Positions 47,482 to 61,471 of a DNA stretch of 64,000 nucleotides are shown here, piece by piece. Origin of the DNA: Dyella choica (GTDB lineage: Bacteria > Pseudomonadota > Gammaproteobacteria > Xanthomonadales > Rhodanobacteraceae); NCBI RefSeq assembly GCF_003977665.1, contig NZ_RYYV01000004.1, forward strand, positions 186,001-250,000. Direction: 5' to 3'. The notes beneath the pieces were generated by a model, which was given only the letters and a program-made list of their open reading frames with translations, had not been told where the DNA came from and searched no databases. The translations under genes and the position numbers were made by a program. Each line of letters starts with the position of its first letter. Position 1 is the first letter of the stretch.

Positions 47482-49344
47482 ATGAGAAAACTAGCTGCAA
47501 CGAAGCGGAACAATCGTGCGGTTTTCAGGTTCCTGGGCGCCTCGGTACTGGCGCTGGCGCCGGTGGGATTCGTCGGCGCCCAAACCGTGGTGCCGTCGAA
47601 TGCGAAAGCGCTGTGCGCAGTCGCGCCAACCACCTTCGCCAGTTGGTTTGTCAGCGGCAAGCCAAGCCTGAATGGCGCGGTCAATCCGGCCGACAGCATC
47701 AAGTTCCCGAACCAGAACGACTGCAACTTCTACAACTGGAGTGCGCAGATGTTTCTCTGGCTCACCTCTCCAGCATCTGGCGCGTATGGCTCGAAAGGCT
47801 TCGTATTCACGTCGCCGATTTTCTATAACGTCTCCGGCTTGAGTAACGGCAAGCGCACCTATTCGCAAAACCAGCCGGACAACCCGCTTCCCCTGCTCAA
47901 CGTACGCGCCGCTCAGGCCGGTGAGCACGGCTTGCAGCTGGTCACCGACAAGAACGGTCAGATCTTCGAAGTGGTGCCGGCTACGCAGGCCGAGAACGGC
48001 AATTCGCTACTGCGCAACGCGGCCGGCAAAATGATCGAGATTCGTCGCGTCGAAGAGCAGCCCGGCAAGAAGCCGAAGTTCTTCGATGCGGCCGACAAGG
48101 AGATCGTGCAACCGAAGGCTCCGAAGCTCGATACTACGCTGGCTTTGCGCGTCGCACCGCAATTGGCCACGGCCACGCCCGCGGAAAAGAAGAACTTCGT
48201 GCAAGGGTTCCAGGTGAACGGCGAGGTGGTGTTCGTCGACAGTAACGGCAACACCATCGACCCGACCCAGGGCCAGGCCGGCGGCTTGTCGGGCGTGCTG
48301 CTCGCGCAAGACCAGTCGCTGGTGTACTACGCCACGATGGTCAACGACGTTTATGCGTTTTTCCAGACCGGCACCGTGAATGGCACCTTCCCAAGCGGCC
48401 CGAGCGGCTACAGCTTCTTCCCCACCTCGGCCCAGCAACTGACCCCGGTGCTCAGGTACGCTGCCTCGAAGGGTTCGAACCTGCCGGACCGGGTCGCCCT
48501 GACGATGGAATTGAAGACCTCGTGGATCGATACCGCGGGCCTGCCTGCGCTGGGATTGAAGCCAAGCGACTTCATCACCGTCACGACCACGGTACCCGTG
48601 TACAACCGCAGTAATCCGAAGCTATGGATTCCTACCAGCCAGACCAAGCAAGTCAACCTGGCCATGGTGGGCATGCATGTGGTCGGCAGCGTCGCCGGAC
48701 ATCCGGAAATGGCCTGGGCCACCTTCGAGCACGTCACCAATGCGCCGAGCTCCGGTTACCAGTACACCAATGTCCAGGGCGGGACGTCCTCGGTGCCGCA
48801 AGGCAAGGCCGGCAAGTGGGCATTCGCCTCACCCACTGCAACGGTCTACAACTTGCAGAAGGCGAACTACAAGGCTGCGCCAAACATCCAGGGGCAGACC
48901 TACAAGGACGGCACCAACACGTATGTCACGGATATCACGCCTAGCGACACCCTGCGTTCAAAGGCCTGGGGTACCGGCTCGGACGCGTCGGACTTCGTCT
49001 TGGAAAATACCGAAGTCATTTCGTCCGACAGCAGTGTGTTGACCCAGATCGCGAAGGGTGACGTGCGCGCCAACTACATCATGACCGGGGCGACCTGGAC
49101 CATCCATGGGCAGACGGTGCAGAACCCGCCGCCCGGCCAGACGCAGCCCAACAACCAGATCGGCACGAATCTGCTCAACAACACCACCATGGAGACTTAC
49201 GATCAGGGCATCGATGCCCGATCCAACGGTTCGAACTGCTTCAGCTGCCATGCCAACGGCTCGCAGCCTGCGGGGCAACCGGCCAATACCGCAGTAAGCC
49301 ATATTTTCACCACGCTGGTCCCGCTATACCCGAAGTCGAACTAG
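47482..49344 (+). CDS. Secreted cytochrome c-like protein, 620 aa
   Basis: A signal peptide (FLGASVLALAPVGFVGAQ) is followed by an early WSAQMFLWLTSPASG region and a long beta-rich middle. Near the C-terminus TTMETYDQGIDAR is followed by NCFSCHANG, a single CxxCH heme c site (residues about 587-591), and VSHIF, which may contribute the distal His. The pattern fits a little-studied family of large single-heme periplasmic proteins. The start has a strong ribosome site (AGGAG). A GC-rich hairpin separates it from hypF, so it is probably not part of the hyp operon, although it is on the same strand. Confidence 0.7.
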   Translation: MRKLAATKRNNRAVFRFLGASVLALAPVGFVGAQTVVPSNAKALCAVAPTTFASWFVSGKPSLNGAVNPADSIKFPNQNDCNFYNWSAQMFLWLTSPASGAYGSKGFVFTSPIFYNVSGLSNGKRTYSQNQPDNPLPLLNVRAAQAGEHGLQLVTDKNGQIFEVVPATQAENGNSLLRNAAGKMIEIRRVEEQPGKKPKFFDAADKEIVQPKAPKLDTTLALRVAPQLATATPAEKKNFVQGFQVNGEVVFVDSNGNTIDPTQGQAGGLSGVLLAQDQSLVYYATMVNDVYAFFQTGTVNGTFPSGPSGYSFFPTSAQQLTPVLRYAASKGSNLPDRVALTMELKTSWIDTAGLPALGLKPSDFITVTTTVPVYNRSNPKLWIPTSQTKQVNLAMVGMHVVGSVAGHPEMAWATFEHVTNAPSSGYQYTNVQGGTSSVPQGKAGKWAFASPTATVYNLQKANYKAAPNIQGQTYKDGTNTYVTDITPSDTLRSKAWGTGSDASDFVLENTEVISSDSSVLTQIAKGDVRANYIMTGATWTIHGQTVQNPPPGQTQPNNQIGTNLLNNTTMETYDQGIDARSNGSNCFSCHANGSQPAGQPANTAVSHIFTTLVPLYPKSN

Positions 49345-49440: not shown

Positions 49441-51870
49441 ATGTCGACTGTGTGGCAACACCTCGAAGTGCGGGTCACCGGTACAGTACAGGGCGTGGGG
49501 TTTCGCCCTACGGTATATCGGCTGGCCCTCGCCTGCGGACTTGACGGCGAAGTCCTGAACGACAGCGAAGGCGTACTGATCCGGCTGGCCGGCGCTCCGG
49601 ATGATGTACGTGACTTCATGCGCCGACTGCCCGGCGAAGCGCCGCCGCTGGCGAAGATCGATTCGATTGCCGCGACCGAGCGTGCCGACTTCCGCGAATA
49701 CCGCGGCTTTCGCATCTCCGATTCGCGCCACGCTGCGGGCCGCACCGAAGTGGCCGCCGATGCCGCAGTCTGCCAAAGCTGCCTCGACGAGATCAGCGAT
49801 CCGCAGCAGCGGCGCTATCTCTATCCCTTTACCAACTGCACCCATTGCGGACCGCGGCTGTCCATCGTGCTGGGCATTCCCTACGATCGTGCGGCCACCA
49901 CGATGGCAGCTTTCGCGATGTGCCCCGCGTGCGCGCGGGAATACGGCGATCCGCTGGATCGGCGCTTCCATGCGCAACCGATCGCTTGCCACACTTGCGG
50001 TCCAACTTTGACGCTGCACGAGGATGGAGCAGCGCTACGCTTCGGCGCAGACGGCAATGCGCGTGCGACGATGGCGCGCCAGCTGGAGCACCTGTGCCGT
50101 GCACTGGCCGCGGGCAAGATCGTGGCTTTGAAGGGTCTCGGCGGATTCCATTTGTGCTGCGACGCCACCCAGCACGCGGCGGTCGCCACGCTACGCCGGC
50201 GCAAGGCACGCGAAGCCAAGCCTTTCGCCCTGATGGCTGCGGACCTGGCCGCGATACGCCGCTATTGCGATATCTCCCCGCTTGAAGAGCAACTGCTGGG
50301 AAGCCCCGCCGCGCCGATCGTTCTGCTCGAGGCACGCAACGAGCCGGCGCCCGACCGCCCGGCGCTTGCGGACGCCATTGCGCCGAACAGCCGCCTGCTC
50401 GGGTTCATGTTGCCCTATACGCCGCTGCACTACCTGCTGTGCCGCCAGTTCGGCCGGCCGCTGGTCATGACGAGCGGGAACCTGTCCGGCGAACCGCAAC
50501 TGATCGACAACGCCGAAGCCCTGCTCAAATTGGGCTGCATCGCCGACCTGATCGCCACCCACAATCGCGACATCGCCAACCGCATGGACGATTCGGTCGT
50601 GCGCGTCGTCGCCGGCCAAGCTCGGCTACTGCGGCGCGCGCGCGGTTATGCGCCGCGCTCGATCACGCTGCCCGCGGGTTTCGAGCGTGCCGATGGCATC
50701 CTCGCTTACGGCGCCGAGCTCAAGTCCACGTTCTGCCTGGTGAAACAGGGCGCAGCCATCCTGTCGCAACACCAAGGCGACCTGGAAGAGGTCAACACCT
50801 ACGAAGACTACGAGCGCAATCTCAGCCTCTACCGCCGATTGTTCGAGTTCACTCCGCGCCATTACGCCGTCGACCTGCACCCCGAATACCTGAGCAGCAA
50901 GCTGGCGCGCCGCGAGTCCCCTGCTTCCGTTATCGCGGTACAGCACCATCACGCGCACATTGCCTGCGCCATGGCGGAAAACGGTCTGGCCAGAACGCAT
51001 CGCCCGGTGCTGGGCATCGCCTTCGACGGGCTGGGCATGGGCGACGGCGGTAGCCTGTGGGGCGGCGAATTCCTGCTGGCCGACTACGCGGGCTACCGCC
51101 GGCTGGCTTGCCTGAAGCCGGTGGCCATGCCTGGCGGCGGACAAGCGGTCCGGCAGCCATGGCGCAACACCCTGGCCCAACTGCTTGCCTGCATGGAGTG
51201 GGAGGATTTCGCTACGCGCTACGGCGATACGGGCATAGGCCGAATGCTGTTGGCCCAACCCATCCCGACATTGCGCACCATGTTGTGTGAGCGCGTGAAC
51301 TGCCCAATGGCCAGTTCCGCCGGCCGCCTGTTCGACGCCGTCGCCGGCGCGCTCGGCCTGCACACTGAGCAGGCGCAGTTCGAAGGGCAAGCCGCCATCG
51401 CGCTGGAAATGCTGGCCGACCGCCCTACGCTGCAAAGCTGCCTCGCGCTCGGCATGGAGCATGGTGGCGAGGCCTACCGCCTGGCTATCGTGGCCGATGC
51501 CGTACCGCTCGTGCTCGATCCAGGCAGCATTTGGCCACGGCTTTGCGACGACCTGCTGCACGGCGTACCGCCCGCCGTCATCGCCGCCCGCTTCCATGCA
51601 GGATTGATCCTGGGCATCGCCGACATGGCCGAGCATTTGCGCCGCAAGCATGGCTTCGGCGACGTGGTGCTATCCGGCGGCTGCATGCAGAACGCACTGC
51701 TGATGGAGGGCTTGGTCGACACGTTCACCGCCGTTGGCATGCGCTGCCTGACCCATACGCTCGTGCCGGCCAACGACGGTGGCATCGCACTCGGACAAGC
51801 CGTGGTCGCCGCTGCACGCATTGCCGGACAGCCGTCCATCGCCGCATCGATTCCCCAAGTTCATGCATAA
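49441..51870 (+). CDS. hypF: Carbamoyltransferase HypF, 809 aa
   Basis: All HypF domains are present: an acylphosphatase domain (GTVQGVGFRPTVYRLA, residues 12-27), two zinc fingers (C-x2-C-x18-C-x2-C, from residue 110 and about 160), a YrdC-like domain (about 200-395) and a Kae1-like domain with HHHAH near residue 502 and GGCMQN near 745. The enzyme turns carbamoyl phosphate and ATP into a carbamoyl group on HypE, the source of the CN ligands. The ATG at 49441 is preceded by GGGA; a GTG at 49417 is an alternative. It is the first gene of the nine-gene cluster. Confidence 0.95.
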   Translation: MSTVWQHLEVRVTGTVQGVGFRPTVYRLALACGLDGEVLNDSEGVLIRLAGAPDDVRDFMRRLPGEAPPLAKIDSIAATERADFREYRGFRISDSRHAAGRTEVAADAAVCQSCLDEISDPQQRRYLYPFTNCTHCGPRLSIVLGIPYDRAATTMAAFAMCPACAREYGDPLDRRFHAQPIACHTCGPTLTLHEDGAALRFGADGNARATMARQLEHLCRALAAGKIVALKGLGGFHLCCDATQHAAVATLRRRKAREAKPFALMAADLAAIRRYCDISPLEEQLLGSPAAPIVLLEARNEPAPDRPALADAIAPNSRLLGFMLPYTPLHYLLCRQFGRPLVMTSGNLSGEPQLIDNAEALLKLGCIADLIATHNRDIANRMDDSVVRVVAGQARLLRRARGYAPRSITLPAGFERADGILAYGAELKSTFCLVKQGAAILSQHQGDLEEVNTYEDYERNLSLYRRLFEFTPRHYAVDLHPEYLSSKLARRESPASVIAVQHHHAHIACAMAENGLARTHRPVLGIAFDGLGMGDGGSLWGGEFLLADYAGYRRLACLKPVAMPGGGQAVRQPWRNTLAQLLACMEWEDFATRYGDTGIGRMLLAQPIPTLRTMLCERVNCPMASSAGRLFDAVAGALGLHTEQAQFEGQAAIALEMLADRPTLQSCLALGMEHGGEAYRLAIVADAVPLVLDPGSIWPRLCDDLLHGVPPAVIAARFHAGLILGIADMAEHLRRKHGFGDVVLSGGCMQNALLMEGLVDTFTAVGMRCLTHTLVPANDGGIALGQAVVAAARIAGQPSIAASIPQVHA

Positions 51871-51888
51871 CCGGAAGAGGAAAGGCAT

Positions 51889-52167
51889 ATGTGCCTAGGC
51901 ATACCAGGAAAAATCGTCGCCATTAGCGATAGCGTGCAACTGCTCGGCATCGTCGACGTGGGCGGCATACAACGCGCGGTGGACTTGAGCTGCGTCGCCC
52001 AAGGCTACGAATCGCTGGAATCGCTGATCGACCGCTGGGTGCTGGTCCACGTGGGCTTCGCCATGAGCGTGATCGACGAAAGCGAGGCTCAGGCCACTCT
52101 CGCGGTACTGACCGAGCTGGGCCAGGTCCAGGAAGAGCTGGCCGCCATGCAGGAAGGCGCATCATGA
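51889..52167 (+). CDS. hypC: Hydrogenase maturation chaperone HypC, 92 aa
   Basis: Starts MCLGIPGKIVAI with the essential Cys2, and has the conserved VDVGGIQRAVDLSCV core and VLVHVGFAMSVIDE. HypC binds HypD and carries the Fe(CN)2(CO) unit to the large subunit. The start has GGAAGAGGAAAGG upstream and lies 18 bases after hypF. Its stop overlaps the next gene (ATGA at 52164-52167). The C-terminal 20 residues are acidic, as is common. Confidence 0.95.
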   Translation: MCLGIPGKIVAISDSVQLLGIVDVGGIQRAVDLSCVAQGYESLESLIDRWVLVHVGFAMSVIDESEAQATLAVLTELGQVQEELAAMQEGAS

Positions 52168-52877
52168 GCGGCGGCGAGAACATCGAACAGCTGCACGCGC
52201 TCTATCCATTCTTGGGTACAAAAAAAACCAATAGCGCCGCCATGCAGCAGGCCCTGCTGATTTCGGTGCAGCAAAAAATCGCCCAACACCTGGATATAGT
52301 CGGGCGATTTTTTGCGACGCAAAACGAGGCCGTGATCGCGTGTGCGCGCACCATTGCCGACATCTATCGAAGCCAGGGCCGGCTCTTCACGATGGGCAAT
52401 GGCGGTTCGAGCTCGGACGCCTCGCATATTGCGGTCGAGTTTCTGCATCCGGTGACGACCGGCCGTCCGGCACTTCCGGCCTTCGACCTCAGCTGCGACA
52501 AGACCGTCATGAGTGCGATCGCCAATGACGTCGGCTACCAGCACGTTTATGCGCGTCAGGTGGCGAGCCTGGTGCGCAAGGAGGACGCGCTGATCGGCGT
52601 TTCGACCAGCGGCAATTCGGCCAACCTACTGCGTGCGTTTGTCCAGGCCAAAAAAATCGGCGCCGCCACCATCGGCCTGTGCGGCGGCGATGGCGGCGAA
52701 ATGGCCAAGGCCGAGCTGGACCATTGCCTGGTGGTCGACTCGGACAGCATCCACCGCATCCAGGAGTGCCACGTCGCCATCTATCACGTGCTGTGGGATC
52801 TGGTGCATACACTGCTGGCCGACGAGCGCGGATTTTCGGGCAGCAAAACCCAAGAACCAACAGGGGCCAAGTCATGA
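52164..52877 (+). CDS. SIS-domain sugar isomerase (GmhA-like) inside the hyp operon, 237 aa
   Basis: A SIS domain of the phosphoheptose isomerase type: MGNGGSSSDASHIAVEF, GVSTSGNSANLLRAF, GLCGGDGGEMA and HRIQECHVAIYHVLWDLVH. By comparison with E. coli GmhA, the metal and catalytic residues (His, Glu, Gln, His) correspond to H88, E92, Q200 and H208, all retained, so it may be an active ketose/aldose-phosphate isomerase. It has about 40 extra N-terminal residues. It overlaps both hypC and hypD by 4 bases. It is not expected for LPS heptose synthesis here. Its reading frame contains a long inverted repeat at 52271-52315. Confidence 0.85.
   Translation: MSGGENIEQLHALYPFLGTKKTNSAAMQQALLISVQQKIAQHLDIVGRFFATQNEAVIACARTIADIYRSQGRLFTMGNGGSSSDASHIAVEFLHPVTTGRPALPAFDLSCDKTVMSAIANDVGYQHVYARQVASLVRKEDALIGVSTSGNSANLLRAFVQAKKIGAATIGLCGGDGGEMAKAELDHCLVVDSDSIHRIQECHVAIYHVLWDLVHTLLADERGFSGSKTQEPTGAKS
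52271..52315. promoter_or_regulatory. Intragenic terminator-like inverted repeat
   Basis: GCAAAAAATCGCCC (52271-52284) and GGGCGATTTTTTGC (52302-52315) are perfect 14-bp complements around a 17-base loop. On either strand this gives a GC stem edge followed by a T run, like an intrinsic terminator, within codons 36-51 of the SIS gene. Confidence 0.6.
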
Positions 52878-54028
52878 AGTATGTGGATGAGTATCGCGAC
52901 CCGGTGGCGGCGGATAAGCTGATCAAGGAAATCACGCGGCTCGCCGATAAGCTCGCCGCCCAACGTGGCCGACCGGTCAACGTGATGGAAGTTTGCGGCG
53001 GCCACACGCATTCGATCTTCCGCTACGGCATCGAGAACATGCTCCCGCCGAGTGTGGAGCTGATCCACGGGCCGGGTTGCCCGGTCTGCGTACTGCCCAT
53101 AGGGCGGGTCGACGATTGCGTGGCGATCGCCGAACACGAAAACGCCATCATGACCACCTTCGGCGACGCGATGCGCGTACCGGGGTCCAAACGCAGCCTG
53201 TTGCAGGCGAAGTCACTGGGCGCCGATGTGCGCATGGTCTATTCACCGCTGGACGCGCTCAAGATCGCACGTAGCCATCCCGACAAAGAGGTGGTGTTCT
53301 TCGGACTCGGCTTCGAAACCACCATGCCCAGCACGGCCTTGACCGTGCTCAAGGCCGAGGCGGCGGGCATCGGCAATTTCTCGCTGTTCTGCAACCACAT
53401 CACCATCATCCCGACGATCAAGGCGGTGCTCGACTCGGAAGACTTCCAGGTCGACGGCTTTCTCGGTCCCGGCCACGTCAGCATGGTGATCGGCACCCGC
53501 CCTTATGGCTTCATCGCCGAGCACTACCGGCGCCCCGTCGTAATAGCAGGCTTCGAGCCTCTGGACATACTGCAATCGCTGTGGATGGTATTGAAGCAAC
53601 TCGATGCGGGGGACGCGCGGATCGAGAACCAGTACAGCCGCGTCGTCCCGGAGGATGGCAACCCCGCGGCACTCCAGGCGATCGGCCGCGTCTTCGAGCT
53701 GCGCCCCTACTTCGAATGGCGCGGCCTCGGCTCGATCGACCATTCCGGCGTGCAGCTCACCGCGCGCTATGCCGCCTACGACGCGGAACGGAAATTCGCC
53801 CTGCCCTCGATCGCCATCGCAGAGCCCAAATCCTGCCAATGCGGCGAAGTGCTCAAGGGCGTGATCAAGCCCTGGCAATGCAAGGTCTACGGCAAGGCTT
53901 GCACTCCGCAGACACCGCTGGGTGCGTTGATGGTGTCGAGCGAAGGCGCGTGCGCCGCTTATTACCAGTACGGCGGCGGTCCGCGCGGACTCGTCAACGA
54001 ACACCCGCCAGGAGAACACGCCGCATGA
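52874..54028 (+). CDS. hypD: Hydrogenase maturation protein HypD, 384 aa
   Basis: Starts MKYVDEYRDP and contains the conserved cysteine motifs: CGGHTH near residue 39, HGPGCPVCVLP near 66, and a C-terminal [4Fe-4S] set (CQCGEVLKG, WQCKVYGKACTP). GFETTMPSTAL is also family-typical. HypD is the scaffold on which Fe receives CN and CO with HypC and HypE. It overlaps the SIS gene stop by 4 bases (ATGA). The longer in-frame reading from 52679 lies inside the SIS gene and is rejected. Confidence 0.95.
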   Translation: MKYVDEYRDPVAADKLIKEITRLADKLAAQRGRPVNVMEVCGGHTHSIFRYGIENMLPPSVELIHGPGCPVCVLPIGRVDDCVAIAEHENAIMTTFGDAMRVPGSKRSLLQAKSLGADVRMVYSPLDALKIARSHPDKEVVFFGLGFETTMPSTALTVLKAEAAGIGNFSLFCNHITIIPTIKAVLDSEDFQVDGFLGPGHVSMVIGTRPYGFIAEHYRRPVVIAGFEPLDILQSLWMVLKQLDAGDARIENQYSRVVPEDGNPAALQAIGRVFELRPYFEWRGLGSIDHSGVQLTARYAAYDAERKFALPSIAIAEPKSCQCGEVLKGVIKPWQCKVYGKACTPQTPLGALMVSSEGACAAYYQYGGGPRGLVNEHPPGEHAA

Positions 54029-55131
54029 ACGTCACGCAGGAAAAATCCTTGGCCGGATTGACCGGTAGCGCCGCGAAAGATTCCCGCATTCGGCGCAGCA
54101 AGCTGGCCAGTCCGCTCATCACGCTGGCGCACGGCGGTGGCGGCAAGGCGATGCGCGAGCTGATCGATGACGTCTTCATCGATGCCTTCAGCAACCCTAC
54201 GCTCAACACGCTGGAGGACCAGGCGCGCATTCCGCTGGCCGAGCTGGCGCGCCTTGGCGACCGCCTGGCCATGACGACCGATTCCTACGTCATCGACCCG
54301 ATCTTCTTCCCCGGCGGCGACATCGGCAAGCTGGCCGTCTGCGGCACCGTGAATGATTTGGCCGTTGGCGGTGCCACGCCGCTTTACCTAACGTGCGCCG
54401 TCATCATCGAGGAAGGCATGCAGGTGGAAACACTGCGTCGCATCGTTGCCTCCATGGCCGAGACTGCCAGGGCGGCCGGCGTCAGCATCGTCACCGGCGA
54501 TACCAAGATCGTCGGACGTGGCAGCTGCGACAAAATATTCATCAACACCGCCGGGGTCGGTGTGATTCGCCAGAACCATCAGCTCGGCGCCAACCGGGCG
54601 CGCCCTGGCGACCGCATCCTGGTCAACGGCTATCTGGGTGATCATGGTGCCGCCGTGCTGAATGCGCGTGGCGACATGCATCTGAGCAGTCCGATCCAGA
54701 GCGATTGCGCTGCCTTGCACGGCTTGATTTCCGTGCTGCTTGCAGCTGCACCGGGAACGCGCTTCATCCGCGATGCCACGCGCGGCGGCATTGCGTCGGT
54801 GCTGAACGAAATCGCCGAAGCCTCGGCGTGCGGCATCGAAATCGCCGAGGCTGCCACGCCGCTTCGCCAGGAGGTCAAGGGATTCTGCGAAATACTGGGC
54901 CTCGACCCGCTCTACCTGGCCAACGAAGGCAAGCTGGTCGCCGTGGTGCCGGAAGCTGAAGCAGCTGCTGCGCTGCAAGCCTTGCGTGCACACCCACTGG
55001 GGCGCGAAGCGGCCGACATCGGTGCGGTGCTTGCCGACGGCCACGCCGGCCGCGTCCACATGCAGACCGTTTTCGGCGGCAAGCGCATCGTTGACATGCT
55101 GATCGGTGAACAGCTGCCGCGCATTTGTTGA
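54025..55131 (+). CDS. hypE: Hydrogenase maturation protein HypE, 368 aa
   Basis: PurM-like ATP-binding fold: LAHGGGGKAMRELI, DQARIPL, TTDSYVIDPIFFPGGDIGKL, VTGDTKIV and RDATRGGIASVLNEIA. It ends in LPRIC, so the conserved C-terminal Cys, which is carbamoylated by HypF and dehydrated to thiocyanate, is present. The first 30 residues are an extra N-terminal extension. The ATG at 54025 overlaps the hypD stop by 4 bases. With HypC, HypD and HypF this gives a complete Fe(CN)2(CO) assembly set. Confidence 0.95.
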   Translation: MNVTQEKSLAGLTGSAAKDSRIRRSKLASPLITLAHGGGGKAMRELIDDVFIDAFSNPTLNTLEDQARIPLAELARLGDRLAMTTDSYVIDPIFFPGGDIGKLAVCGTVNDLAVGGATPLYLTCAVIIEEGMQVETLRRIVASMAETARAAGVSIVTGDTKIVGRGSCDKIFINTAGVGVIRQNHQLGANRARPGDRILVNGYLGDHGAAVLNARGDMHLSSPIQSDCAALHGLISVLLAAAPGTRFIRDATRGGIASVLNEIAEASACGIEIAEAATPLRQEVKGFCEILGLDPLYLANEGKLVAVVPEAEAAAALQALRAHPLGREAADIGAVLADGHAGRVHMQTVFGGKRIVDMLIGEQLPRIC

Positions 55132-55178
55132 TGCCGGCACCTTTGTAAGCGTGCCCCCCTCTCCGCCAAGGTTCCCCC

Positions 55179-55790
55179 ATGCACACATTCTCTTCCAAGC
55201 AGTACATCCCGGCAGAAGGCCTGCTGACCCGCATTGTCGACCAAGACGAAGTGTTGACGCTGGACTACCAGGAAGCCACGCGTCGTCATCAGCGCTCGCT
55301 CTGGTGGGGCACTGCCGTGGGCTATCGCGCCATGCAAGTTGCGGCCGTCGCGCTTTCGGCAGAAAGCCTTTGGCGGCGCGACAACCTGGTCGTCGTCAGT
55401 GCCCATCCCGGACCCGGCGTGCTCGACTCACTGAACTACGTCACGCTGTGCGCCGACCGCGGCACGCTGACCGTGCTGCAGAACGACCATTGCGTCAATC
55501 GCTGCAATAGCGAGATGAAATTCGAGTGGTGGGTCAGCGACGGCGACCGCACCGCCCACATCAGGCTCGACGAAGACTTCGTTCCGCGCGAATTCTATGA
55601 ATTGATCGATCGGCGCGTGTACAGCGAAACCCGTGCCGACGATGACAAGCTGTTCGAGCTGTACAAGGTGAACCTGTCCTCGCGGATCTGGGTGGCGCCG
55701 CTGGAGCAAAGCTTTACGTTCGAGTTGCTGCCGCCGATGGCGCGGGGGGAACGGCCGGTTGGCCACGCTTGGGTCAAGGAACCTGCATGA
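55179..55790 (+). CDS. FmdE-like (?) protein in the hyp cluster, 203 aa
   Basis: The ATG at 55179 follows AAGG. The pattern WWGTAVGYRAMQVAAVAL, then SAHPGPGVLDSLNYVTLC, and later ELIDRRV with LFELYKVNLSSRIW resembles the FmdE domain (usually HG..C..GYR, followed by a D.....TGCT stretch), though the similarity is distant and the usual N-terminal His/Cys metal ligands seem altered. Three Cys occur in DHCVNRCN and LCADRG. It lies 47 bases after hypE and overlaps the next gene (ATGA). It has no signal peptide. Role unknown; a metal- or cofactor-binding partner is inferred from context. Confidence 0.45.
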   Translation: MHTFSSKQYIPAEGLLTRIVDQDEVLTLDYQEATRRHQRSLWWGTAVGYRAMQVAAVALSAESLWRRDNLVVVSAHPGPGVLDSLNYVTLCADRGTLTVLQNDHCVNRCNSEMKFEWWVSDGDRTAHIRLDEDFVPREFYELIDRRVYSETRADDDKLFELYKVNLSSRIWVAPLEQSFTFELLPPMARGERPVGHAWVKEPA

Positions 55791-56683
55791 CGGAAAGCCC
55801 GTTTCCGCTTGCAATGGACCCGCTGAAGGACGAGATTCCGGCGAGAATGCTTGTGCTGGCGAGTGTGGCAGAACCACCACGTGACTACGACGGCGACCTG
55901 TTCGGGCATTATCCCGGCATGAAGCTCGGACGCATGTCCGATGTCGACTTTTTTGCGGGGAAACTGTGCGACCTGGCAGCGCAGGTGCTTGCGGAAGGCA
56001 CGGCGGACGATGAGTGGGTGTTGACCGCACCGGCCTATTACCGGCTTCCCGCCGGCGCCAATCTGCTGGCGGAGCGCATGCACAGCATGCTGTGCGATCG
56101 AGGCGTCGCATTGTCGCTCGTGGCATTGCGACAGTCGTTCGAACAGATCGCCGTGCACAGCCTCGAGGAGTTTCGGCTCTCCCACGACTACAGCCTGAGC
56201 CCGCTGGCCCAGCGCGTCATCGAACGGCAACGCCTGCACGATATGGCGCCTTCGGACCCAAGCCGGCGGCGCTTCGCCAAGCGCAAGGTGATCGTCGTCA
56301 ACGATATTCACGTCACCGGCACGCAGCAGCGCTTCATGCAACTCGAACTGGCGGCGGCCGGTGCCAGTGAGTGTCATTGGCTGTATATCTTCCACATCGA
56401 GGATGAGCTGGCACGTGCTTGCCCAGAGATCGAACACCGTATCAACAACAGCGACCTGGCCGATCTCGACAGCTATGCAGCCCTGCTGTCGGATCCGGCA
56501 ACGCGCCACACAGCGCGCTGCCTGGCGCGTCTGTTCAATACAGAACCCGATCAGTTCCGCTATCTGGTCGCCACACTGCAACCGAATGCGCGCGAACGGA
56601 TCTATCGCCTGGCGAGGGACGAGGAGCGCTATGACATCCCCTTATTCGCCGAAAAAATGCGCCTACTGGCCGGTAGCGACTAG
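55787..56683 (+). CDS. Phosphoribosyltransferase-like protein, 298 aa
   Basis: Residues 167-180 (KVIVVNDIHVTGTQ) match the PRPP-binding loop of type I phosphoribosyltransferases (hydrophobic strand, acidic pair, TGT). An earlier APAYYRLPAGANLLAERM fits the PPi loop area. After residue 200 the protein carries its own helical C-terminal part. The ATG at 55787 has AAGGA upstream and overlaps the preceding stop. A PRPP-using reaction is likely, but the acceptor base or sugar is unknown; binding without catalysis is also possible. Its place among hyp genes is unexpected. Confidence 0.7.
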   Translation: MTESPFPLAMDPLKDEIPARMLVLASVAEPPRDYDGDLFGHYPGMKLGRMSDVDFFAGKLCDLAAQVLAEGTADDEWVLTAPAYYRLPAGANLLAERMHSMLCDRGVALSLVALRQSFEQIAVHSLEEFRLSHDYSLSPLAQRVIERQRLHDMAPSDPSRRRFAKRKVIVVNDIHVTGTQQRFMQLELAAAGASECHWLYIFHIEDELARACPEIEHRINNSDLADLDSYAALLSDPATRHTARCLARLFNTEPDQFRYLVATLQPNARERIYRLARDEERYDIPLFAEKMRLLAGSD

Positions 56684-56701
56684 ACGGAGGCAAATCCGAT
56701 C

Positions 56702-57520
56702 ATGTACGCCATCAATTACCGTATCCCCCAAGTCGACCTGGCGGAAATCCGCAAGCCGCACTACCAGATTCCGCTGGACCGCTCTTCCGGGTTGTTTGCC
56801 GAGGAAATGGTCGACGTGCGCGACTACGGCCTCAGCTTCCTGTCCTGGCATGCCATCGATGACGGCAGCAATGCGCCTTATGGCAAGCCAATCGCCGGCA
56901 GCAGGACCGACGGCTGGCTGCGCAGGACGTTCGCCGAAAAGCTGGCGCGCGCCGACCGATTGCTTGCCGAGTACGATGCGCAATTGCTGATTCTCGACGC
57001 CTACCGTTCGATCGAATGCCAGCACGGACTGTGGGGATTTTTCTGGGAACTTGGGCGCAAGGAGAACCCCGCGGCGAGCGACGAAGACCTGCGCCAATAT
57101 GCGTCGCGCTACCTGCGGGACCCGCGCACCTTTGATCGCAACGACGCACGCACGTTCCCCATACACTGCACCGGGGCATCCATCGACGTCGTGCTGCGCA
57201 GCCGCTCGACGGGGCAATGGCTCGACATGGGTTCGCGCTTCGACGAATACACCGAGGCCAGCGTCACCGACTACTTCGAACGCCAGCTGCTGCAGGATGC
57301 GATCAGCCAGGACGACCACCGGCTGTGGAACCGGCGCCTGTTGCACTGGGCGCTATCGAGCCAGGACATTACCAACGACCCGCTGCTGTACTGGCACCAC
57401 GACTGGGGCAACCAGATCTGGATCAAGGTCAAGCGGGCGGTCTACGGCGACGCGCTGGAGACGGCCTGGTACGGCTACGTCGACGCCCCGCCCCGGTCCC
57501 CGGCCGCGCTCGCAGGCTGA
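56702..57520 (+). CDS. VanX-fold (M15D) protein lacking the catalytic Glu, 272 aa
   Basis: The D-Ala-D-Ala dipeptidase fold is recognisable: LLILDAYRS with R102, IHCTGASIDVVL with zinc ligands H155 and D162 (H-x2-G-x3-D), LDMGSRFDEYTE, NRRLLHWAL, and a last metal His in LYWHHDWGNQ (H232). In VanX the sequence before that His is EWWH, and the Glu is the general base. Here the aligned residue is L229, so the Glu is missing. Zinc binding is retained but peptidase activity is doubtful. It lacks a signal peptide. The ATG at 56702 follows GGAGG. The position in the cluster suggests a changed role. Confidence 0.7.
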   Translation: MYAINYRIPQVDLAEIRKPHYQIPLDRSSGLFAEEMVDVRDYGLSFLSWHAIDDGSNAPYGKPIAGSRTDGWLRRTFAEKLARADRLLAEYDAQLLILDAYRSIECQHGLWGFFWELGRKENPAASDEDLRQYASRYLRDPRTFDRNDARTFPIHCTGASIDVVLRSRSTGQWLDMGSRFDEYTEASVTDYFERQLLQDAISQDDHRLWNRRLLHWALSSQDITNDPLLYWHHDWGNQIWIKVKRAVYGDALETAWYGYVDAPPRSPAALAG

Positions 57521-57534
57521 AGGAGCATTTGCCT

Positions 57535-59367
57535 ATGGACTTTCAAACGCAGCCCCGCGCGATGACGGGGAACCCGGACGCGGTCGGCGAATTGAGCGCT
57601 GCGATGATGCGCGAGTTGCGTGCACGCAATCGTGCGAACCTCGCCGCGGCGGCGGCGCAGACCGACCCGCTGGCACGGCTCGAAGGCAGCCTGGCCGTGC
57701 ATTGCCGAGTCGATCTTGCCAGCCGCACGATGCTGGAAAGTGCTTCGATGGCCAGCTTGTTCAAGGGCTACGAAGCGCTGCTGCCAGGGCGCGACTTGAG
57801 CAAGGTCGGACTGATCAGCGCGACCGCCTCCGGCATTTGCGGCGGCGTCCACGCCACTGCCTCGGCGCTGTGCCTGGAGATGGCGCTTGGCCTGGCGCCG
57901 CCGCCTCTGGGCATCGTGTTGCGCAACCTGCTTTTGAGCTGTCAGTACCTCAACGACAGCTGCCTGCATCTGTTCGTACTGGCCGGACCAGACTATTCGC
58001 GCCAGGCGTTCGAACGGACCAATCCGGAAATCTGGAACCGTGCAGTAAAGGCACCGTCCCGCCACGCGCAACAGCACGGCTACACGCGCATCGGCGACCT
58101 CATGGCCGCGCTCGACAAAGGAACTGGCGCCTTGTACCAGGAGGCGCTGCAGATGGCGGCACGCGCACGCCAGGCCTACACGCTGCTGGGCGGCAAATAC
58201 CCGCACTCGGAATCGATCGTTCCTGGCGGGGTGGCGCTCCTCGCCGACGCGGCCAAACTCGCCGAATTCAGCGCTGTGTTGCAGCCGTTTGCCGCCTATA
58301 GCCAAAAGGCCGCCGCGGTCTGGGACGAAGTGTTCGACTTCCTGCTGGAGATCGAACCGCGCTACGCCGAACTCGGGCGCGCGCGCGCCTCGATGCTCGA
58401 CTTTGGCCAATGGGATCATCCGGATCACTACGACGGCAGCTACGCACGCTGCGACATCTGGGGTGCGCAGCGCTGGTCAACGCCAGGTGCGCTGATCGAT
58501 GGTCAGCTGGCCTGCACCGAGCTGAGCCTGCTCAACGCTGGCATCGAAGAACATCTGGACCACTCCTATCAGCAGCGCGCAGCCGAACCGCGCGCCTTCA
58601 TCAGCACTGATCCGAACGGTAACCCCATCTCGCGCTTCCATCCCTGGAACAAGAGGACCGAACCCGCCAAAGCGCACAATCCCCACGCGTATAGCTGGGG
58701 CTCAAGCTTTGCCTGGCGCGGCCACAATTTCGAGGTCGGAGCCTATGCGCGCCTCTACTTGAGTGCAGCGGCGCGAGCTCTGCCACCCAGCAGGCATGTT
58801 GCGGCCGATGGCGCTGGACTGGATTTCAGCTTACCGGATGAAATGGGCCGGGAACTCGCCTTGCGCTGGAATATCCCTGCACTATGGAACACCTTTGAGC
58901 GCAACCGCGCCCGTGCGTACTCCCTTGCGTTCAACCTTGGCGTAACGCGCGAGAATATCGCGCTGGCCGAGGCGGCCATTGCTTCGGGCGAAACCAGAAC
59001 GCGCGTATCGCTCGATAATCTACCAACCGGGCGGTGCCTCGGTGTCGGCTTGTGGGGCGCCAGCCGCGGTTTCCTTGCGCATTGGGCCGTGCTGGAGAGT
59101 CAGGTGATCGACAACTACCAGATCGCCATCCCTTCGCGCATCAACGTCGGAACGCGCATGCCGGATCGTACTCCGGGACCGCTGGAGCAAGCCTTGTCCA
59201 ACACGCGCATCGTTGAAAGCCGCTACAGCGGTCCGGATGATTTCACCGGCATCGATATCCAGCGTGTCGTGCAAAGCTTCGATCCATGCATGGATTGCAC
59301 GGTTCATATCCTGATCGGTGATGGCGCAACGGTACTGGAACGCACCATCGATACGCGCGCCCGGTAA
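57535..59367 (+). CDS. Divergent [NiFe]-hydrogenase large-subunit-like protein, 610 aa
   Basis: Homology runs end to end: DPLARLEGSLAVHCRVD (canonical R-I-E-G-H), SGICGGVHATASALCLEMALG (N-terminal metal motif), LGGKYPHSESIVPGGV, GVGLWGASRGFLAHWA, DNYQIAIPSRIN, and at the end SFDPCMDCTVH. The C-terminal pair C585/C588 and H591 are intact. The N-terminal motif retains C102 and H106, but C-to-H spacing is 4 instead of 7: a 3-residue deletion removes the second Cys, and the Arg before the motif is Gly. The His of RIEGH is Ser. A 19-residue tail follows H591. The ATG at 57535 has AAGGAG upstream. No small subunit is encoded nearby, so H2 oxidation is doubtful. Confidence 0.85.
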   Translation: MDFQTQPRAMTGNPDAVGELSAAMMRELRARNRANLAAAAAQTDPLARLEGSLAVHCRVDLASRTMLESASMASLFKGYEALLPGRDLSKVGLISATASGICGGVHATASALCLEMALGLAPPPLGIVLRNLLLSCQYLNDSCLHLFVLAGPDYSRQAFERTNPEIWNRAVKAPSRHAQQHGYTRIGDLMAALDKGTGALYQEALQMAARARQAYTLLGGKYPHSESIVPGGVALLADAAKLAEFSAVLQPFAAYSQKAAAVWDEVFDFLLEIEPRYAELGRARASMLDFGQWDHPDHYDGSYARCDIWGAQRWSTPGALIDGQLACTELSLLNAGIEEHLDHSYQQRAAEPRAFISTDPNGNPISRFHPWNKRTEPAKAHNPHAYSWGSSFAWRGHNFEVGAYARLYLSAAARALPPSRHVAADGAGLDFSLPDEMGRELALRWNIPALWNTFERNRARAYSLAFNLGVTRENIALAEAAIASGETRTRVSLDNLPTGRCLGVGLWGASRGFLAHWAVLESQVIDNYQIAIPSRINVGTRMPDRTPGPLEQALSNTRIVESRYSGPDDFTGIDIQRVVQSFDPCMDCTVHILIGDGATVLERTIDTRAR

Positions 59368-59424: not shown

Positions 59425-59769
59425 TCAGCGCTTGCAAAGCACCTCATGCAACGCCGCCATCAGCGCATGCACACGCTCATCGCTGATGCGGTAATAGATC
59501 GACTGCCCTTCACGACGCCCCTGGACGAGGCCCTCGCGCCGTAACAAGGACAAATGCTGCGACACCACGCTTTGCGCCACCCCCAGCGTCTCGGCGAGGT
59601 CGTTGACCGAACGTTTGCCGTCCAGCATTTGACACAGCAGCAGCAAGCGGTTCTGGTTGCCGACGGCCTTGAGCATGCCCACGACATCCTCAGCGCGGCG
59701 TTGCATGGCCTGGATATCCAGGCTTCCGGCCTGCCGCTTGCGGGACGTGCCGGCAGGCATCCTGCTCAT
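59425..59769 (-). CDS. bigR: ArsR-family repressor, BigR-like, 114 aa
   Basis: A winged-helix ArsR domain (LLLLCQMLDGKRSVNDLAETLGVAQSVVSQHLSLLRREGLV) has one Cys in LLLCQML and one near the end in EVLCKR. This matches the two-Cys persulfide sensor of BigR, which releases DNA when the cysteines link through sulfur. It overlaps the end of the upstream metallo-beta-lactamase gene by 4 bases. With blh and the YeeE/YedE genes it makes the bigR-type operon. Its probable operator is at 61484-61503. Confidence 0.85.
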   Translation of the reverse strand: MSRMPAGTSRKRQAGSLDIQAMQRRAEDVVGMLKAVGNQNRLLLLCQMLDGKRSVNDLAETLGVAQSVVSQHLSLLRREGLVQGRREGQSIYYRISDERVHALMAALHEVLCKR

Positions 59770-60632
59770 AGGGCATCCAGCGGCAGCTTGAGATAGCGAA
59801 TGCCATTCTCCTCGGCCGCCGGCAAGTGTCCCGCCCACATGTTGACCTGCACCGATGGCAGCAGCAGCCGCGGCACGGCCAGCCTGGCATCCCGCTCAGT
59901 ACGCAAGCGTACGAACTCCTCTTCGCTCACCCCCTGACGCAGGTGGATATTGTTCCGCTTCTGCTCGCCCATCGTCGTCGCGTAGCCATAGTCTTCGCGG
60001 CCCGGCGGCTTGTAGTCGTGACACAGGAATACGCGGGTGTCGTCCGGCAGCTCGAACAGCTTGCGCGAAGAGCGATACAACACAGCGGCGTCGCCGCCGG
60101 GGAAATCGCAACGTGCCGAGCCATAGTCCGGCATGAACAGCGTATCGCCGACGAAGGCCGCATCGCCGATCACGTGTGTCATGCATGCAGGCGTATGCCC
60201 GGGCGTGTAAAGGGCGACGGCCTCGATGCTGCCCAAGTGATAATGTTCACCGTCCTTGAACAGATGGTCGAATTGGCTGCCATCGCGCCGGAATGCCGCC
60301 CCCGCATGGAACAGTTCACCGAACACATCCTGCACGGCCGCGATGTGCTCACCGATAGCCACTTTTCCGCCCAATCGGGCTTGCAGGTAGGGCGCCGCCG
60401 ACAAGTGATCGGCATGCACATGGGTTTCGATCAGCCAGACCAGCGACAAGCGCATCGCTTGCACGAAGGCCACGATGGCATCGGCCGAGACGTGGCCGGT
60501 GCGTCCCGAGGCCGGGTCGAAATCGAGCACGCTATCGATGATTGCCGCTTCGCGCGTCGCCGGATCCCACACCACGTAACTGAAGGTGTTGCTGGATGCG
60601 TCAAAGAATGCCTTGACCTCAGGAGCTGTCAT
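59766..60632 (-). CDS. blh: Metallo-beta-lactamase-fold persulfide dioxygenase-like (Blh), 288 aa
   Basis: The metal motif THVHADH and later TPGHTPACMTHVIGD, FVGDTLFMPDYG, and FLCHDYKPPGR are those of the ETHE1/Blh branch of the metallo-beta-lactamase fold, which oxidises glutathione persulfide to sulfite. It is cytoplasmic. The operon order (transporters, blh, bigR) matches known BigR loci involved in H2S detoxification. Confidence 0.88.
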   Translation of the reverse strand: MTAPEVKAFFDASSNTFSYVVWDPATREAAIIDSVLDFDPASGRTGHVSADAIVAFVQAMRLSLVWLIETHVHADHLSAAPYLQARLGGKVAIGEHIAAVQDVFGELFHAGAAFRRDGSQFDHLFKDGEHYHLGSIEAVALYTPGHTPACMTHVIGDAAFVGDTLFMPDYGSARCDFPGGDAAVLYRSSRKLFELPDDTRVFLCHDYKPPGREDYGYATTMGEQKRNNIHLRQGVSEEEFVRLRTERDARLAVPRLLLPSVQVNMWAGHLPAAEENGIRYLKLPLDAL

Positions 60633-60644
60633 GCGCGGTTTCCT

Positions 60645-61046
60645 TCAAATACGATCAGCCAATCGCCAGCCCAGCACCATCGCGGCAACCAGGCCCCCTA
60701 TCGGCAGCATGTCGCCTGCCAACGACACCAGGGCCGGCCCCGGGCAATAGCCGGCAAGCCCCCAGCCCACACCAAAGATAGCTGCGCCGCCCACCAGGCG
60801 CACATCGATACGGCGCGTTTCCGGCAGGCGAAAACCATCGGCCAGCCATGGTGTGGACCGTCGCCACGACCAGCGGTAACCGAGCATCGTGACCGGAATC
60901 GCTCCCAGCATCACGAACAGCAGGCGCGGGTCCCAGGCACCGGCCACGTCCAGAAAGCCTAGCACCACCGCCGGCTGCGTCATGCCACCCAGCACCAGGC
61001 CAACACCAAGGAGCAATCCCGCCAACCCGGCCATCAGGAACTTCAT
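60645..61046 (-). CDS. YeeE/YedE-family membrane protein, second half-size subunit, 133 aa
   Basis: Hydrophobic segments (GLAGLLLGVGLVLGGMTQP, LVGGAAIFGVGWGLAGYCPGPAL) include the conserved Gly-rich GWGLAGYCPGP motif with one Cys. It starts inside the stop of the upstream partner (4-base overlap). YeeE/YedE proteins move thiosulfate or related sulfur species across the inner membrane; here the two halves are separate small proteins. Confidence 0.88.
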   Translation of the reverse strand: MKFLMAGLAGLLLGVGLVLGGMTQPAVVLGFLDVAGAWDPRLLFVMLGAIPVTMLGYRWSWRRSTPWLADGFRLPETRRIDVRLVGGAAIFGVGWGLAGYCPGPALVSLAGDMLPIGGLVAAMVLGWRLADRI

Positions 61047-61471
61047 GCGGGCAGACCTCCGATAATGTGCCGCACCACGAACACTGTGGCCATGGCCGTG
61101 AGCATGAACACCACGGTCGCCACCATCGAGCGTGGCGAAAGGCGCGCCACCCCGCATACGCCGTGGCCACTGGTGCAGCCACGGCCCAACCGGGTCCCCA
61201 CCCCCACCAACAGACCTGCCGCAAGCATCCAGGGCCAGCCAACCTGGGGCACTCCCACGCGGGTTCCCGGCCACCACCACAAAGCCACCGGCGCCGCGAC
61301 CAGGCCGAGAAGAAAACTGACGCGCCACGCGCGATCCCCTGGCGACACACCCGATACCAGGCCCGCAGCGATGCCGCTGATCCCAGCGACCCGACCCAAT
61401 GAGCCCATCAGCAAGACGGCGGCCAAGCCAACCAGAACACCACCCAAGGTGGCGAAGAGCCAGGCATGCAT
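61043..61471 (-). CDS. YeeE/YedE-family membrane protein, first half-size subunit, 142 aa
   Basis: Membrane protein with GRGCTSGHGVCGVARLS, the Cys-containing signature of YeeE/YedE sulfur transporters, and several hydrophobic segments. It is the first gene of the operon that continues with its partner, blh and bigR, with 4-base overlaps typical of coupled translation. The AT-rich operator lies 13 bases upstream of its start. The substrate (sulfide, persulfide or thiosulfate) is not determined from sequence. Confidence 0.88.
   Translation of the reverse strand: MHAWLFATLGGVLVGLAAVLLMGSLGRVAGISGIAAGLVSGVSPGDRAWRVSFLLGLVAAPVALWWWPGTRVGVPQVGWPWMLAAGLLVGVGTRLGRGCTSGHGVCGVARLSPRSMVATVVFMLTAMATVFVVRHIIGGLPA

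What the first reader, a model, noticed from the sequence alone, without database searches (positions are those of the whole stretch)
49441..59367. Nine-gene Hyp cluster dedicated to a divergent hydrogenase-like acceptor, without small subunit or Ni-insertion genes
Seen: hypF, hypC, SIS, hypD, hypE, FmdE-like, phosphoribosyltransferase-like, VanX-like and hydrogenase large-subunit-like genes are all on one strand, most with ATGA overlaps or short gaps. Known: HypC/D/E/F build Fe(CN)2(CO) for [NiFe] hydrogenases, which also need HypA/HypB for Ni, a small FeS subunit and usually an endopeptidase. None of these is in the window, and genes downstream are unrelated. Inference: the cluster makes a non-classical organometallic protein, possibly Fe-only or with another metal, coupled to sugar-phosphate or PRPP chemistry.
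Basis: partly seen in the sequence, partly recalled or inferred. Interest (0 to 1): 0.92.

Follow-up and report, generated by a model that had tools for sequence, protein, structure and literature searches.

The report
Nickel-less hydrogenase relative with own gene cluster
A group of bacteria carries a conserved gene cluster that could build the iron-cyanide-carbon monoxide half of the hydrogen-splitting enzyme's metal centre for a sister protein that has lost a nickel-binding residue and the usual partner genes, which suggests a non-hydrogen use of this unusual chemistry.

Summary
Nine intact genes (hypF, hypC, SIS, hypD, hypE, FmdE-like, PRTase-like, VanX-like, hydrogenase large-subunit-like "LSU") lie on one strand; an exported CxxCH protein directly upstream (47482-49344) probably belongs too. 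The window's genome (99.96% complete) has no HypA, HypB or HycI endopeptidase match; its one PF01058 match looks like NuoB. LSU belongs to one clade (23 sequences, support 100/100) of Proteobacteria. The sister group has normal cysteines, a small subunit and an endopeptidase. In the clade the first nickel cysteine is Ser in 23 of 23, Cys in 16 of 16 relatives; the Arg and Ser of the cyanide pocket are kept in 23 of 23, the second iron-bridging Cys in 22. Of 22 other carrier genomes, 0 have a small subunit, 0 HycI, and 2 HypA and HypB (over cut-off). Eighteen of 23 loci hold all nine genes; four of the other five are cut by contig ends. FmdE-like and LSU genes occur in the same five of 299 genomes. 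The proteins that build Fe(CN)2CO are present with their key residues; those of the later steps are missing. Best reading: a nickel-free Fe(CN)2CO protein, not a hydrogenase. Cofactor and reaction are inferred, not shown.

The parts
47482..49344 (+). CYT: predicted exported 620-aa protein with one CxxCH haem-c motif near its C-terminus (window NCFSCH); tenth member by conserved neighbourhood
   Evidence: relative found by tblastn in 12 of 23 clade-A loci and by single-linkage clustering in 16 of 23, including relatives at 17-21% identity; window copy without Pfam or NCBIfam match; signal peptide judged by eye
49441..51870 (+). hypF, carbamoyltransferase, 809 aa
   Evidence: TIGR00143 E 3e-225; all five HypF Pfam parts
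51889..52167 (+). hypC, 92 aa, Met-Cys start
   Evidence: PF01455 E 3e-22; starts MCL in the 19 of 19 clade-A copies examined
52164..52877 (+). SIS-domain protein (GmhA-like), 237 aa
   Evidence: PF13580; same place in the C. necator group 1h hyp operon
52874..54028 (+). hypD, 384 aa
   Evidence: TIGR00075 E 5e-150; Cys motifs in the 18 of 18 clade-A copies over 300 aa
54025..55131 (+). hypE, 368 aa, ends PRIC
   Evidence: TIGR02124 E 4e-136; LPRIC C-terminus in the 18 of 18 clade-A copies examined
55179..55790 (+). FmdE-like protein, 203 aa; invariant H37, H76, C105, C109 (possible metal ligands)
   Evidence: 12 of 15 members match PF02663 at E<=1, best 4e-4; invariant residues in 15 of 15; AlphaFold model pLDDT 82 matches 2glz (TM by target 0.70 and 0.72) and 2gvi (0.54)
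55787..56683 (+). PRTase_3-like protein, 298 aa; loop VNDIxVTGTQQ at the place of the PRPP loop
   Evidence: PF15610 in 16 of 16 members at E<=1, best 6e-14; NDI-VTG invariant in 16 of 16
56702..57520 (+). VanX-like M15 protein, 272 aa; zinc ligands H155, D162, H232 kept, VanX catalytic Glu absent
   Evidence: PF01427; 1r44 E 4e-8 by profile; 16 aligned sequences, two of them from L057
57535..59367 (+). LSU: hydrogenase large-subunit homologue, 610 aa; Cys1 replaced by Ser99; Cys2 C102, Cys3 C585, Cys4 C588 present; 19-residue tail after DPCMDCTVH
   Evidence: 5aa5 HofG E 2e-94; model TM 0.82/0.89 to 5aa5; residue census; tree

Best explanation
The cluster makes and serves a cytosolic protein that descends from a [NiFe]-hydrogenase large subunit but is kept, as its final form, at the stage that true hydrogenases pass through just before nickel insertion. 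HypF, HypE, HypD and HypC build Fe(CN)2CO and HypC delivers it to LSU (Hyp residues shown intact; synthesis and delivery inferred; the source of the CO ligand was not examined). The iron is held by the bridging cysteines C102 and C588 and the cyanide pocket R511/S534 (residues shown, binding inferred). Nickel is not added: HypA and HypB are missing and the first terminal nickel cysteine is serine. No HycI endopeptidase cuts the tail, and no small subunit takes electrons. Freed from H2 chemistry, the site most likely acts directly on a small substrate. The FmdE-like, PRTase-like and M15-like proteins make or handle that substrate, and the exported haem-motif protein is a redox partner elsewhere in the pathway. 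These last steps are inference and the reaction is unknown. Whether another metal sits at the vacated nickel place is left open (second rival, a special case counted inside this confidence).
For: (1) Cys1 is Ser in 23 of 23 clade-A sequences and Cys in 16 of 16 relatives (8 sister clade, 4 group 1h, 4 others); C102, C585, R511, S534 and D583 are 23 of 23, C588 22 of 23. The five clade members found by whole-protein search, without any motif pattern, all have Ser. (2) Steps after Fe(CN)2CO are missing: over cut-off in 22 other carrier genomes, small subunit PF14720 0, HycI 0, HypA 2 and HypB 2, the same two genomes; in the window's genome no HypA, HypB or HycI. Contrast in 8 sister-clade genomes: small subunit 7, HycI 6. 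(3) Hyp proteins look intact: HypC Cys2 19/19, HypE PRIC 18/18, HypD Cys motifs 18/18 of the copies examined. (4) One origin, support 100/100, among sequences with canonical cysteines. (5) Purifying selection on all ten genes, dN/dS 0.07-0.31 against four close orthologues. (6) FmdE-like gene and LSU in the same 5 of 299 genomes. (7) In C. necator the order is hypF-hypC-SIS-hypD-hypE-hypA-hypB; here FmdE-like, PRTase-like and VanX-like stand where hypA-hypB stand there. (8) In E. coli HycE Fe(CN)2CO goes in before nickel, probably first at C244, which by spacing is the second cysteine of the N-terminal motif and is kept here (review PMC12134894, section 9). A nickel-free intermediate that holds Fe(CN)2CO is known (PMC11565642, passages).
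Against: In E. coli HycE C241, by spacing the cysteine lost here, is essential for binding HypC (PMC12134894, section 9); delivery to LSU would need another contact. One clade member (L048, a MAG) has Thr for the fourth cysteine, an iron-bridging ligand. Cys3 (C585), a nickel ligand, is kept 23 of 23, so nickel or another metal may still bind. Two of 22 carriers have HypA and HypB: G307, with a second hydrogenase on the same contig, and G301, where no second PF00374 gene was found. A third, G304, has a 27-residue HypA fragment under the cut-off and two further PF00374 stretches on another contig, so it may hold a true hydrogenase too. G321 has a small-subunit match under the cut-off (1.3e-4). 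Sister clade B also mostly lacks HypA and HypB over cut-off (1 of 8 each), so their absence alone is not decisive. One of the two patterns of the collection scan contained the Ser motif, so 23 of 23 is partly by selection. HypX or another CO source was not searched. No cofactor has been measured.
Confidence: 0.55

Rival explanations
1. LSU is a small-subunit-free [NiFe] protein (H2 sensor or minimal hydrogenase) with Ser or water as fourth nickel ligand; nickel comes by a route other than HypA/HypB.
For: Three of four cysteines, the Arg over the site and the Asp before Cys3 are kept. Clade B hydrogenases mostly lack HypA/HypB over cut-off too, yet carry canonical cysteines, and several have a CobW gene (4 of 8 loci) or a CooC-like ATPase (6 of 8) nearby (CobW checked by Pfam for L052, CooC-like judged by eye), so other nickel routes may exist.
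Against: No small subunit and no HycI over cut-off in any of 22 carriers; the Ser is invariant rather than variable.
Confidence: 0.15
2. Special case of the best explanation: a heterobimetallic site with another metal (Fe, Zn, Mn or Co) at the former nickel position, loaded by the FmdE-like protein, whose invariant His/Cys residues could bind metal and which stands where hypAB stands in C. necator.
For: C585 and C102 kept, Ser99 invariant; FmdE-like H37, H76, C105 and C109 invariant in 15 of 15; gene position.
Against: No direct evidence of metal transfer by FmdE-type proteins was found here.
Confidence: 0.2
3. LSU is a scaffold that passes Fe(CN)2CO to a small organic ligand made by the PRTase-like and M15-like proteins, giving a diffusible organometallic cofactor, in the way the FeGP cofactor of [Fe]-hydrogenase is a nucleotide-like iron complex (recalled comparison).
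For: A PRTase-family gene in 19 of 23 loci and an FmdE-like gene in 20 of 23; loss of the tail cut and the small subunit would leave the site open.
Against: The PRPP loop is altered (VND-VTG); no ligand is known; nothing shows release of the iron unit.
Confidence: 0.08
4. A decaying hydrogenase operon with no function.
For: Loss of several hydrogenase genes and of one metal ligand.
Against: dN/dS 0.07-0.31 for ten genes; additional genes kept across distant proteobacterial lineages; key Hyp residues kept in the copies examined.
Confidence: 0.02

Closest known systems
Group 1h (actinobacterial-type) [NiFe]-hydrogenase of Cupriavidus necator H16, large subunit HofG (PDB 5aa5) and its pHG1 operon
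   Same: best sequence and fold match of LSU among solved structures (33% identity, TM 0.82/0.89); hypF-hypC-SIS-hypD-hypE in the same order
   Different: C. necator adds hypA, hypB, an endopeptidase and other accessory genes and keeps all four cysteines; the window has no hypA, hypB or HycI and has three other genes there
Sister clade B hydrogenases (L050-L053, L056, L060, L061, L067)
   Same: nearest relatives in the tree, share C136, E226 and S534 with clade A
   Different: canonical cysteines 8 of 8; small subunit in 7 of 8 genomes, HycI in 6 of 8
Nickel-free large-subunit maturation intermediate (preHoxG without Ni)
   Same: Fe(CN)2CO without nickel in a large subunit is the state proposed here (PMC11565642, passages)
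   Different: there a maturation intermediate; here proposed as the final protein
FmdE-like proteins (2glz, 2gvi)
   Same: fold
   Different: 10-14% identity over the fold; Pfam score of the window copy below cut-off
VanX D-Ala-D-Ala dipeptidase (1r44)
   Same: M15 family and His/Asp/His zinc ligands
   Different: the catalytic Glu of the EWWH motif (role recalled) is replaced by a non-acidic residue in 16 of 16

Membership tests
[NiFe]-hydrogenase | four cysteines in two CxxC motifs | tested here: not met
   Cys1 is Ser in 23 of 23
[NiFe]-hydrogenase | FeS small subunit | tested here: not met
   PF14720 over cut-off in 0 of 22 other carrier genomes, one match under it (G321); own genome has one 207-aa PF01058 frame only
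[NiFe]-hydrogenase | nickel insertion proteins HypA and HypB | tested here: not met
   own genome none; over cut-off in 2 of 22 other carriers. Clade B, taken as true hydrogenases, has them in 1 of 8, so the feature is not universal
[NiFe]-hydrogenase | C-terminal endopeptidase | tested here: not met
   own genome none; 0 of 22. Some true hydrogenases have no tail to cut (PMC7294309, passages), but LSU keeps a tail
[NiFe]-hydrogenase | large-subunit fold | tested here: met
   PF00374 E 2e-56; TM 0.82/0.89 to 5aa5
[NiFe]-hydrogenase | Fe(CN)2CO made by HypCDEF | tested here: inconclusive
   genes and key residues present; cofactor not measured
[NiFe]-hydrogenase | H2 activation | not testable with these tools
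   needs purified protein
FmdE family | FmdE fold | tested here: met
   E 2e-4, TM by target 0.54-0.72; sequence score below Pfam cut-off
VanX / M15D dipeptidase | zinc ligands His, Asp, His | tested here: met
   H155, D162, H232 invariant in 16 of 16 sequences, two from one locus
VanX / M15D dipeptidase | catalytic Glu | tested here: not met
   the position, set by the alignment to 1r44, holds non-acidic residues in 16 of 16
PRTase_3 (PF15610) | family profile | tested here: met
   16 of 16 members match at E<=1, best 6e-14; window copy 1.8e-4, 21.4 bits against a cut-off of 28.7
PRTase_3 (PF15610) | phosphoribosyl transfer | not testable with these tools
   PRPP loop altered to VNDIxVTG

The most novel reading that the evidence does not exclude
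The Fe(CN)2CO centre, known to me (recalled) only as half of the [NiFe]-hydrogenase site and its maturation intermediates, is used here as a complete nickel-free cofactor in a non-hydrogenase enzyme with its own 9-10 gene pathway, taken over once from a hydrogenase and spread through Proteobacteria.
Probability: 0.4. Interest if true: 0.95.

Novelty: new variant of a known kind. Interest (0 to 1): 0.83.

Why it matters
Cells make iron cyanide and carbonyl bonds at high cost, and as far as I know (recalled) only for [NiFe]-hydrogenases by the Hyp route. A conserved clade that keeps the costly iron half and drops a nickel ligand, the small subunit and tail cutting would be a natural experiment on what Fe(CN)2CO can do alone. 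It could give a stable stand-in for a maturation intermediate. It also warns that a protein annotated as 'nickel-dependent hydrogenase large subunit' without a small subunit and without Cys1 should not be counted as H2 metabolism.

Tried and rejected
Decaying operon: rejected on dN/dS and conservation. SIS as the sign of sugar chemistry: not accepted because it stands in the ordinary group 1h hyp operon. VanX-like as a true D-Ala-D-Ala dipeptidase: lacks the catalytic Glu. VanX-like as a replacement endopeptidase: could not be tested. Profile search of FmdE-like proteins against solved structures gave one chance-level match (0.34); the fold search gave FmdE. NCBIfam on 14 exported haem-motif proteins gave nothing meaningful. 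Literature: eight answered searches (and on side questions 102, 103) listed no paper whose title or abstract start describes a Hyp cluster with a large-subunit homologue without small subunit and HypAB; only this open-access library was searched and most hits were judged from the listing alone. Papers opened: PMC12727194 (passages), PMC12134894 (passages and section 9), PMC11565642 (passages), PMC7294309 (passages); PMC6769069 was asked for once, the call failed, and it was not read. dN/dS against L043 was saturated for most genes and is not used. The dN/dS is a simple Nei-Gojobori count of my own. Promoter scan 2 found against 2.8 expected, terminators 15 against 10.3: no use. Clade (A or B) was assigned from the motif and agrees with the tree. 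Not done: a search for HypX, PF14720 on the window's own genome, a metagenome scan.


Full report
WHAT IS THERE. The nine genes are intact and on one strand, with 4-base overlaps at four junctions. hypF, hypC, hypD and hypE are unambiguous. SIS is a GmhA-like SIS-domain protein. LSU is a PF00374 protein (E 2e-56) whose best solved relative is HofG of the group 1h hydrogenase of Cupriavidus necator (5aa5, E 2e-94). The predicted LSU structure (pLDDT 83.8, pTM 0.88) matches 5aa5 with TM 0.82 by query and 0.89 by target. The loop that carries the changed cysteine motif (93-101) has pLDDT below 50, as have residues 1-17. The FmdE-like label is right by fold (2glz, 2gvi) although its Pfam score is weak. 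The PRTase-like protein belongs to PF15610 by 16 of 16 members. The VanX-like protein keeps the three zinc ligands and lacks the catalytic Glu in 16 of 16 sequences.

A TENTH GENE. Upstream of hypF, 96 bases away, lies a 620-aa protein with an apparent signal peptide and one CxxCH motif (47482-49344). A relative is found by tblastn in 12 of 23 clade loci and by clustering in 16 of 23 (with some relatives at 17-21% identity). The two large ORFs before it are on the other strand, so a ten-gene unit is plausible. No clear promoter was seen.

ABSENCES IN THE WINDOW'S GENOME. The assembly (99.96% complete) has no HypA, HypB or HycI match at E<=0.001, one PF01058 frame of 207 aa that I take for NuoB and one PF00374 gene. 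The same searches rang in named control genomes, E. coli among them. PF14720 and HypX were not searched in this genome.

RELATIVES. A whole-protein search of 299 genomes of the order (the window's own included) found a match in 41; five are close (51-100% identity, E below 1e-190), the other 36 are distant (E no better than 1e-25). A pattern scan of the 84,980-species collection gave 29 loci. With the window and G060 (L036) these 31 fall into two groups. Clade A has 23 members (window, L036, L040-L049, L054, L055, L057-L059, L062-L066, L068), all with the motif ASGICGGVH. Clade B has 8 members (L050-L053, L056, L060, L061, L067), all with ACGVCGGVH. The scan used two patterns; one, SGICGGVH, contains the Ser, the other, M[LV]DFGQW, does not. 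So the Ser count is partly by selection and the number of carriers is a lower bound, but the five found without patterns are also all Ser. By record titles and recalled taxonomy the carriers are Alpha-, Beta- (Oxalobacteraceae) and Gammaproteobacteria.

TREE. Clade A is one side of a branch with support 100/100; A and B together are separated from four group 1h sequences with 98/97; B as a group has only 72/68, so A may arise from within B. Thus A most likely came once out of enzymes with canonical cysteines. The stem of A is long (0.44).

ACTIVE SITE. Census on 39 sequences: Cys1 is Ser in 23 of 23 A, Cys in 8 of 8 B, 4 of 4 group 1h and 4 of 4 others. Cys2 (C102) and Cys3 (C585) are Cys in all 39; Cys4 (C588) is Cys in 22 of 23 A (Thr in L048). 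R511, D583, P584 and H106 are 23 of 23. S534 is Ser in all A and B and Thr in the other eight. That the Arg and this Ser/Thr hold the cyanides, and that Cys2 and Cys4 bridge to iron while Cys1 and Cys3 are terminal on nickel, is recalled from hydrogenase structures. The His at the usual cleavage point is kept in 16 of 23 only; a tail persists wherever the gene is complete (L042 ends at its contig edge). Other positions specific to A include C57 (22 of 23), C113, Q137, S225, S227, D307, R535 and Q580.

PARTNERS. With adjoining stretches fetched for eight loci, 18 of 23 loci have all nine genes; L047, L048, L059 and L062 are cut by contig ends, and L054 lacks SIS and PRTase-like in the stretch seen. 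Counts: HypF 22, HypC 21, SIS 20, HypD 21, HypE 20, FmdE-like 20, PRTase-like 19, VanX-like 20 of 23. Gene order and strand vary between loci, which suggests that the linkage is selected. In the 299-genome draw the FmdE-like family (E below 1e-100) occurs in exactly the five genomes that carry clade-A LSU; one further genome has a weak match of 8e-9 (same handles as as far as listed).

CONTRAST WITH TRUE HYDROGENASES. Over cut-off in the 22 other carriers of A against 8 of B: small subunit PF14720 0 against 7; HycI 0 against 6; HypA 2 against 1; HypB 2 against 1. The two A genomes with HypA and HypB are G301 (L042) and G307 (L048); G307 has a second PF00374 gene on the same contig, G301 shows none. 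G304 (L045) has a 27-residue HypA fragment under the cut-off and two further PF00374 stretches on another contig, so it may hold a true hydrogenase as well. G321 (L062) has a small-subunit match under the cut-off (1.3e-4). Many genomes have HypB matches under the cut-off, which I take for UreG or CobW relatives. Completeness is known for four of the 22 carriers, all 99% (G060; and G189, G020, G015, which are the genomes of L049, L063, L055); all four lack all four families. The others are drafts or MAGs of unstated completeness, so single absences are weak, the pattern strong. Because B also mostly lacks HypA and HypB over cut-off, the sharp contrast is small subunit, HycI and Cys1.

ORIGIN. 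On C. necator plasmid pHG1 the group 1h hyp genes run hypF-hypC-SIS-hypD-hypE-hypA-hypB. The window has the same first five in the same order, then FmdE-like, PRTase-like, VanX-like and LSU. SIS is therefore probably part of an inherited hyp set, not a sign of a new sugar pathway.

MECHANISM. Present knowledge, from the review PMC12134894 (section 9): HypC brings Fe(CN)2CO to the apo large subunit before nickel, probably first to C244 of HycE (by spacing the second cysteine of the N-terminal motif, here C102); nickel later binds C531 (here C585); tail cutting then closes the site. A nickel-free large subunit with Fe(CN)2CO is a known intermediate (PMC11565642, passages). Clade A keeps the Hyp proteins for the steps up to that point (HypC Cys2, HypD cysteines and HypE PRIC in all copies examined) and lacks those for the later ones. 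The source of the CO ligand was not examined. I therefore read LSU as a hydrogenase halted before nickel and put to another use. Shown: genes, residues, absences, co-occurrence, selection (dN/dS 0.07-0.31 against four orthologues). Inferred: presence of Fe(CN)2CO, absence of nickel, the substrate and the roles of FmdE-like, PRTase-like, VanX-like and the exported haem-motif protein. The main obstacle is that HycE needs C241, by spacing the residue that is Ser here, to bind HypC.

NOVELTY. Eight literature searches in the held library (side questions 102, 103) listed no description of such a cluster; subscription journals are mostly not held. SIS genes among the neighbours of hydrogenase genes are on record (PMC12727194, passages of a table). 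I grade it a new variant of a known kind, because the fold and the Hyp route are known and the cofactor is not measured; if the nickel-free Fe(CN)2CO cofactor is shown, it would be a new kind of enzyme.

Noticed in passing
L044:4972-5583, L044:6303-7175, L047:4990-6585, L063:14332-15957 (-), L082:9381-11003 (-): In four clade-A loci an insert beside VanX-like (in three of them between it and LSU) encodes a multicopper oxidase, a YCF48-like BNR protein, two family-2 glycosyltransferases and a conserved protein without significant Pfam match; the BNR protein and, in L044, a ricin-lectin protein carry repeated K-x-A-F-[AGS] motifs (two to five), as if they were sites of modification (families checked on L044 and L063 copies).
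   Followed up: partly
L058:12250-13527, L054:11953-13131, L059:4498-5736, L062:10321-11607, L057:12210-13376, L064:11690-13018: In six clade-A loci (mostly alphaproteobacterial) a YcaO protein (PF02624; scanned for L058 and L062 only, the rest by similarity) lies near LSU on the same strand, which may point to peptide-backbone modification.
   Followed up: partly
L048:4314-6134: The LSU of a Methylococcaceae MAG has Thr in place of the fourth cysteine (DPCMKT) in addition to Ser for the first.
   Followed up: no
L035:8358-9107: Dyella subtropica (G189 = genome of L049) holds a second, partial LSU copy (residues 361-610, 89% identical) on another contig, without the other eight genes in the 12 kb looked at.
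   Followed up: partly
L057:1167-1955 and L057:2881-3681: One alphaproteobacterial locus has two VanX-like genes on either side of the PRTase-like gene.
   Followed up: no
L052:17791-18420 and L061:17539-18069: Two clade-B hydrogenase loci carry an ORF weakly similar to the FmdE-like protein (blastp; tblastn found none in clade B), in L061 beside ABC transporter genes judged by eye.
   Followed up: no
window 59425-61471, - strand: Downstream of the cluster, on the other strand, lie ORFs that look like an ArsR-type regulator, a metallo-beta-lactamase-fold protein and YeeE/YedE-like membrane proteins, perhaps a sulfide-response set (read by eye, not searched).
   Followed up: no
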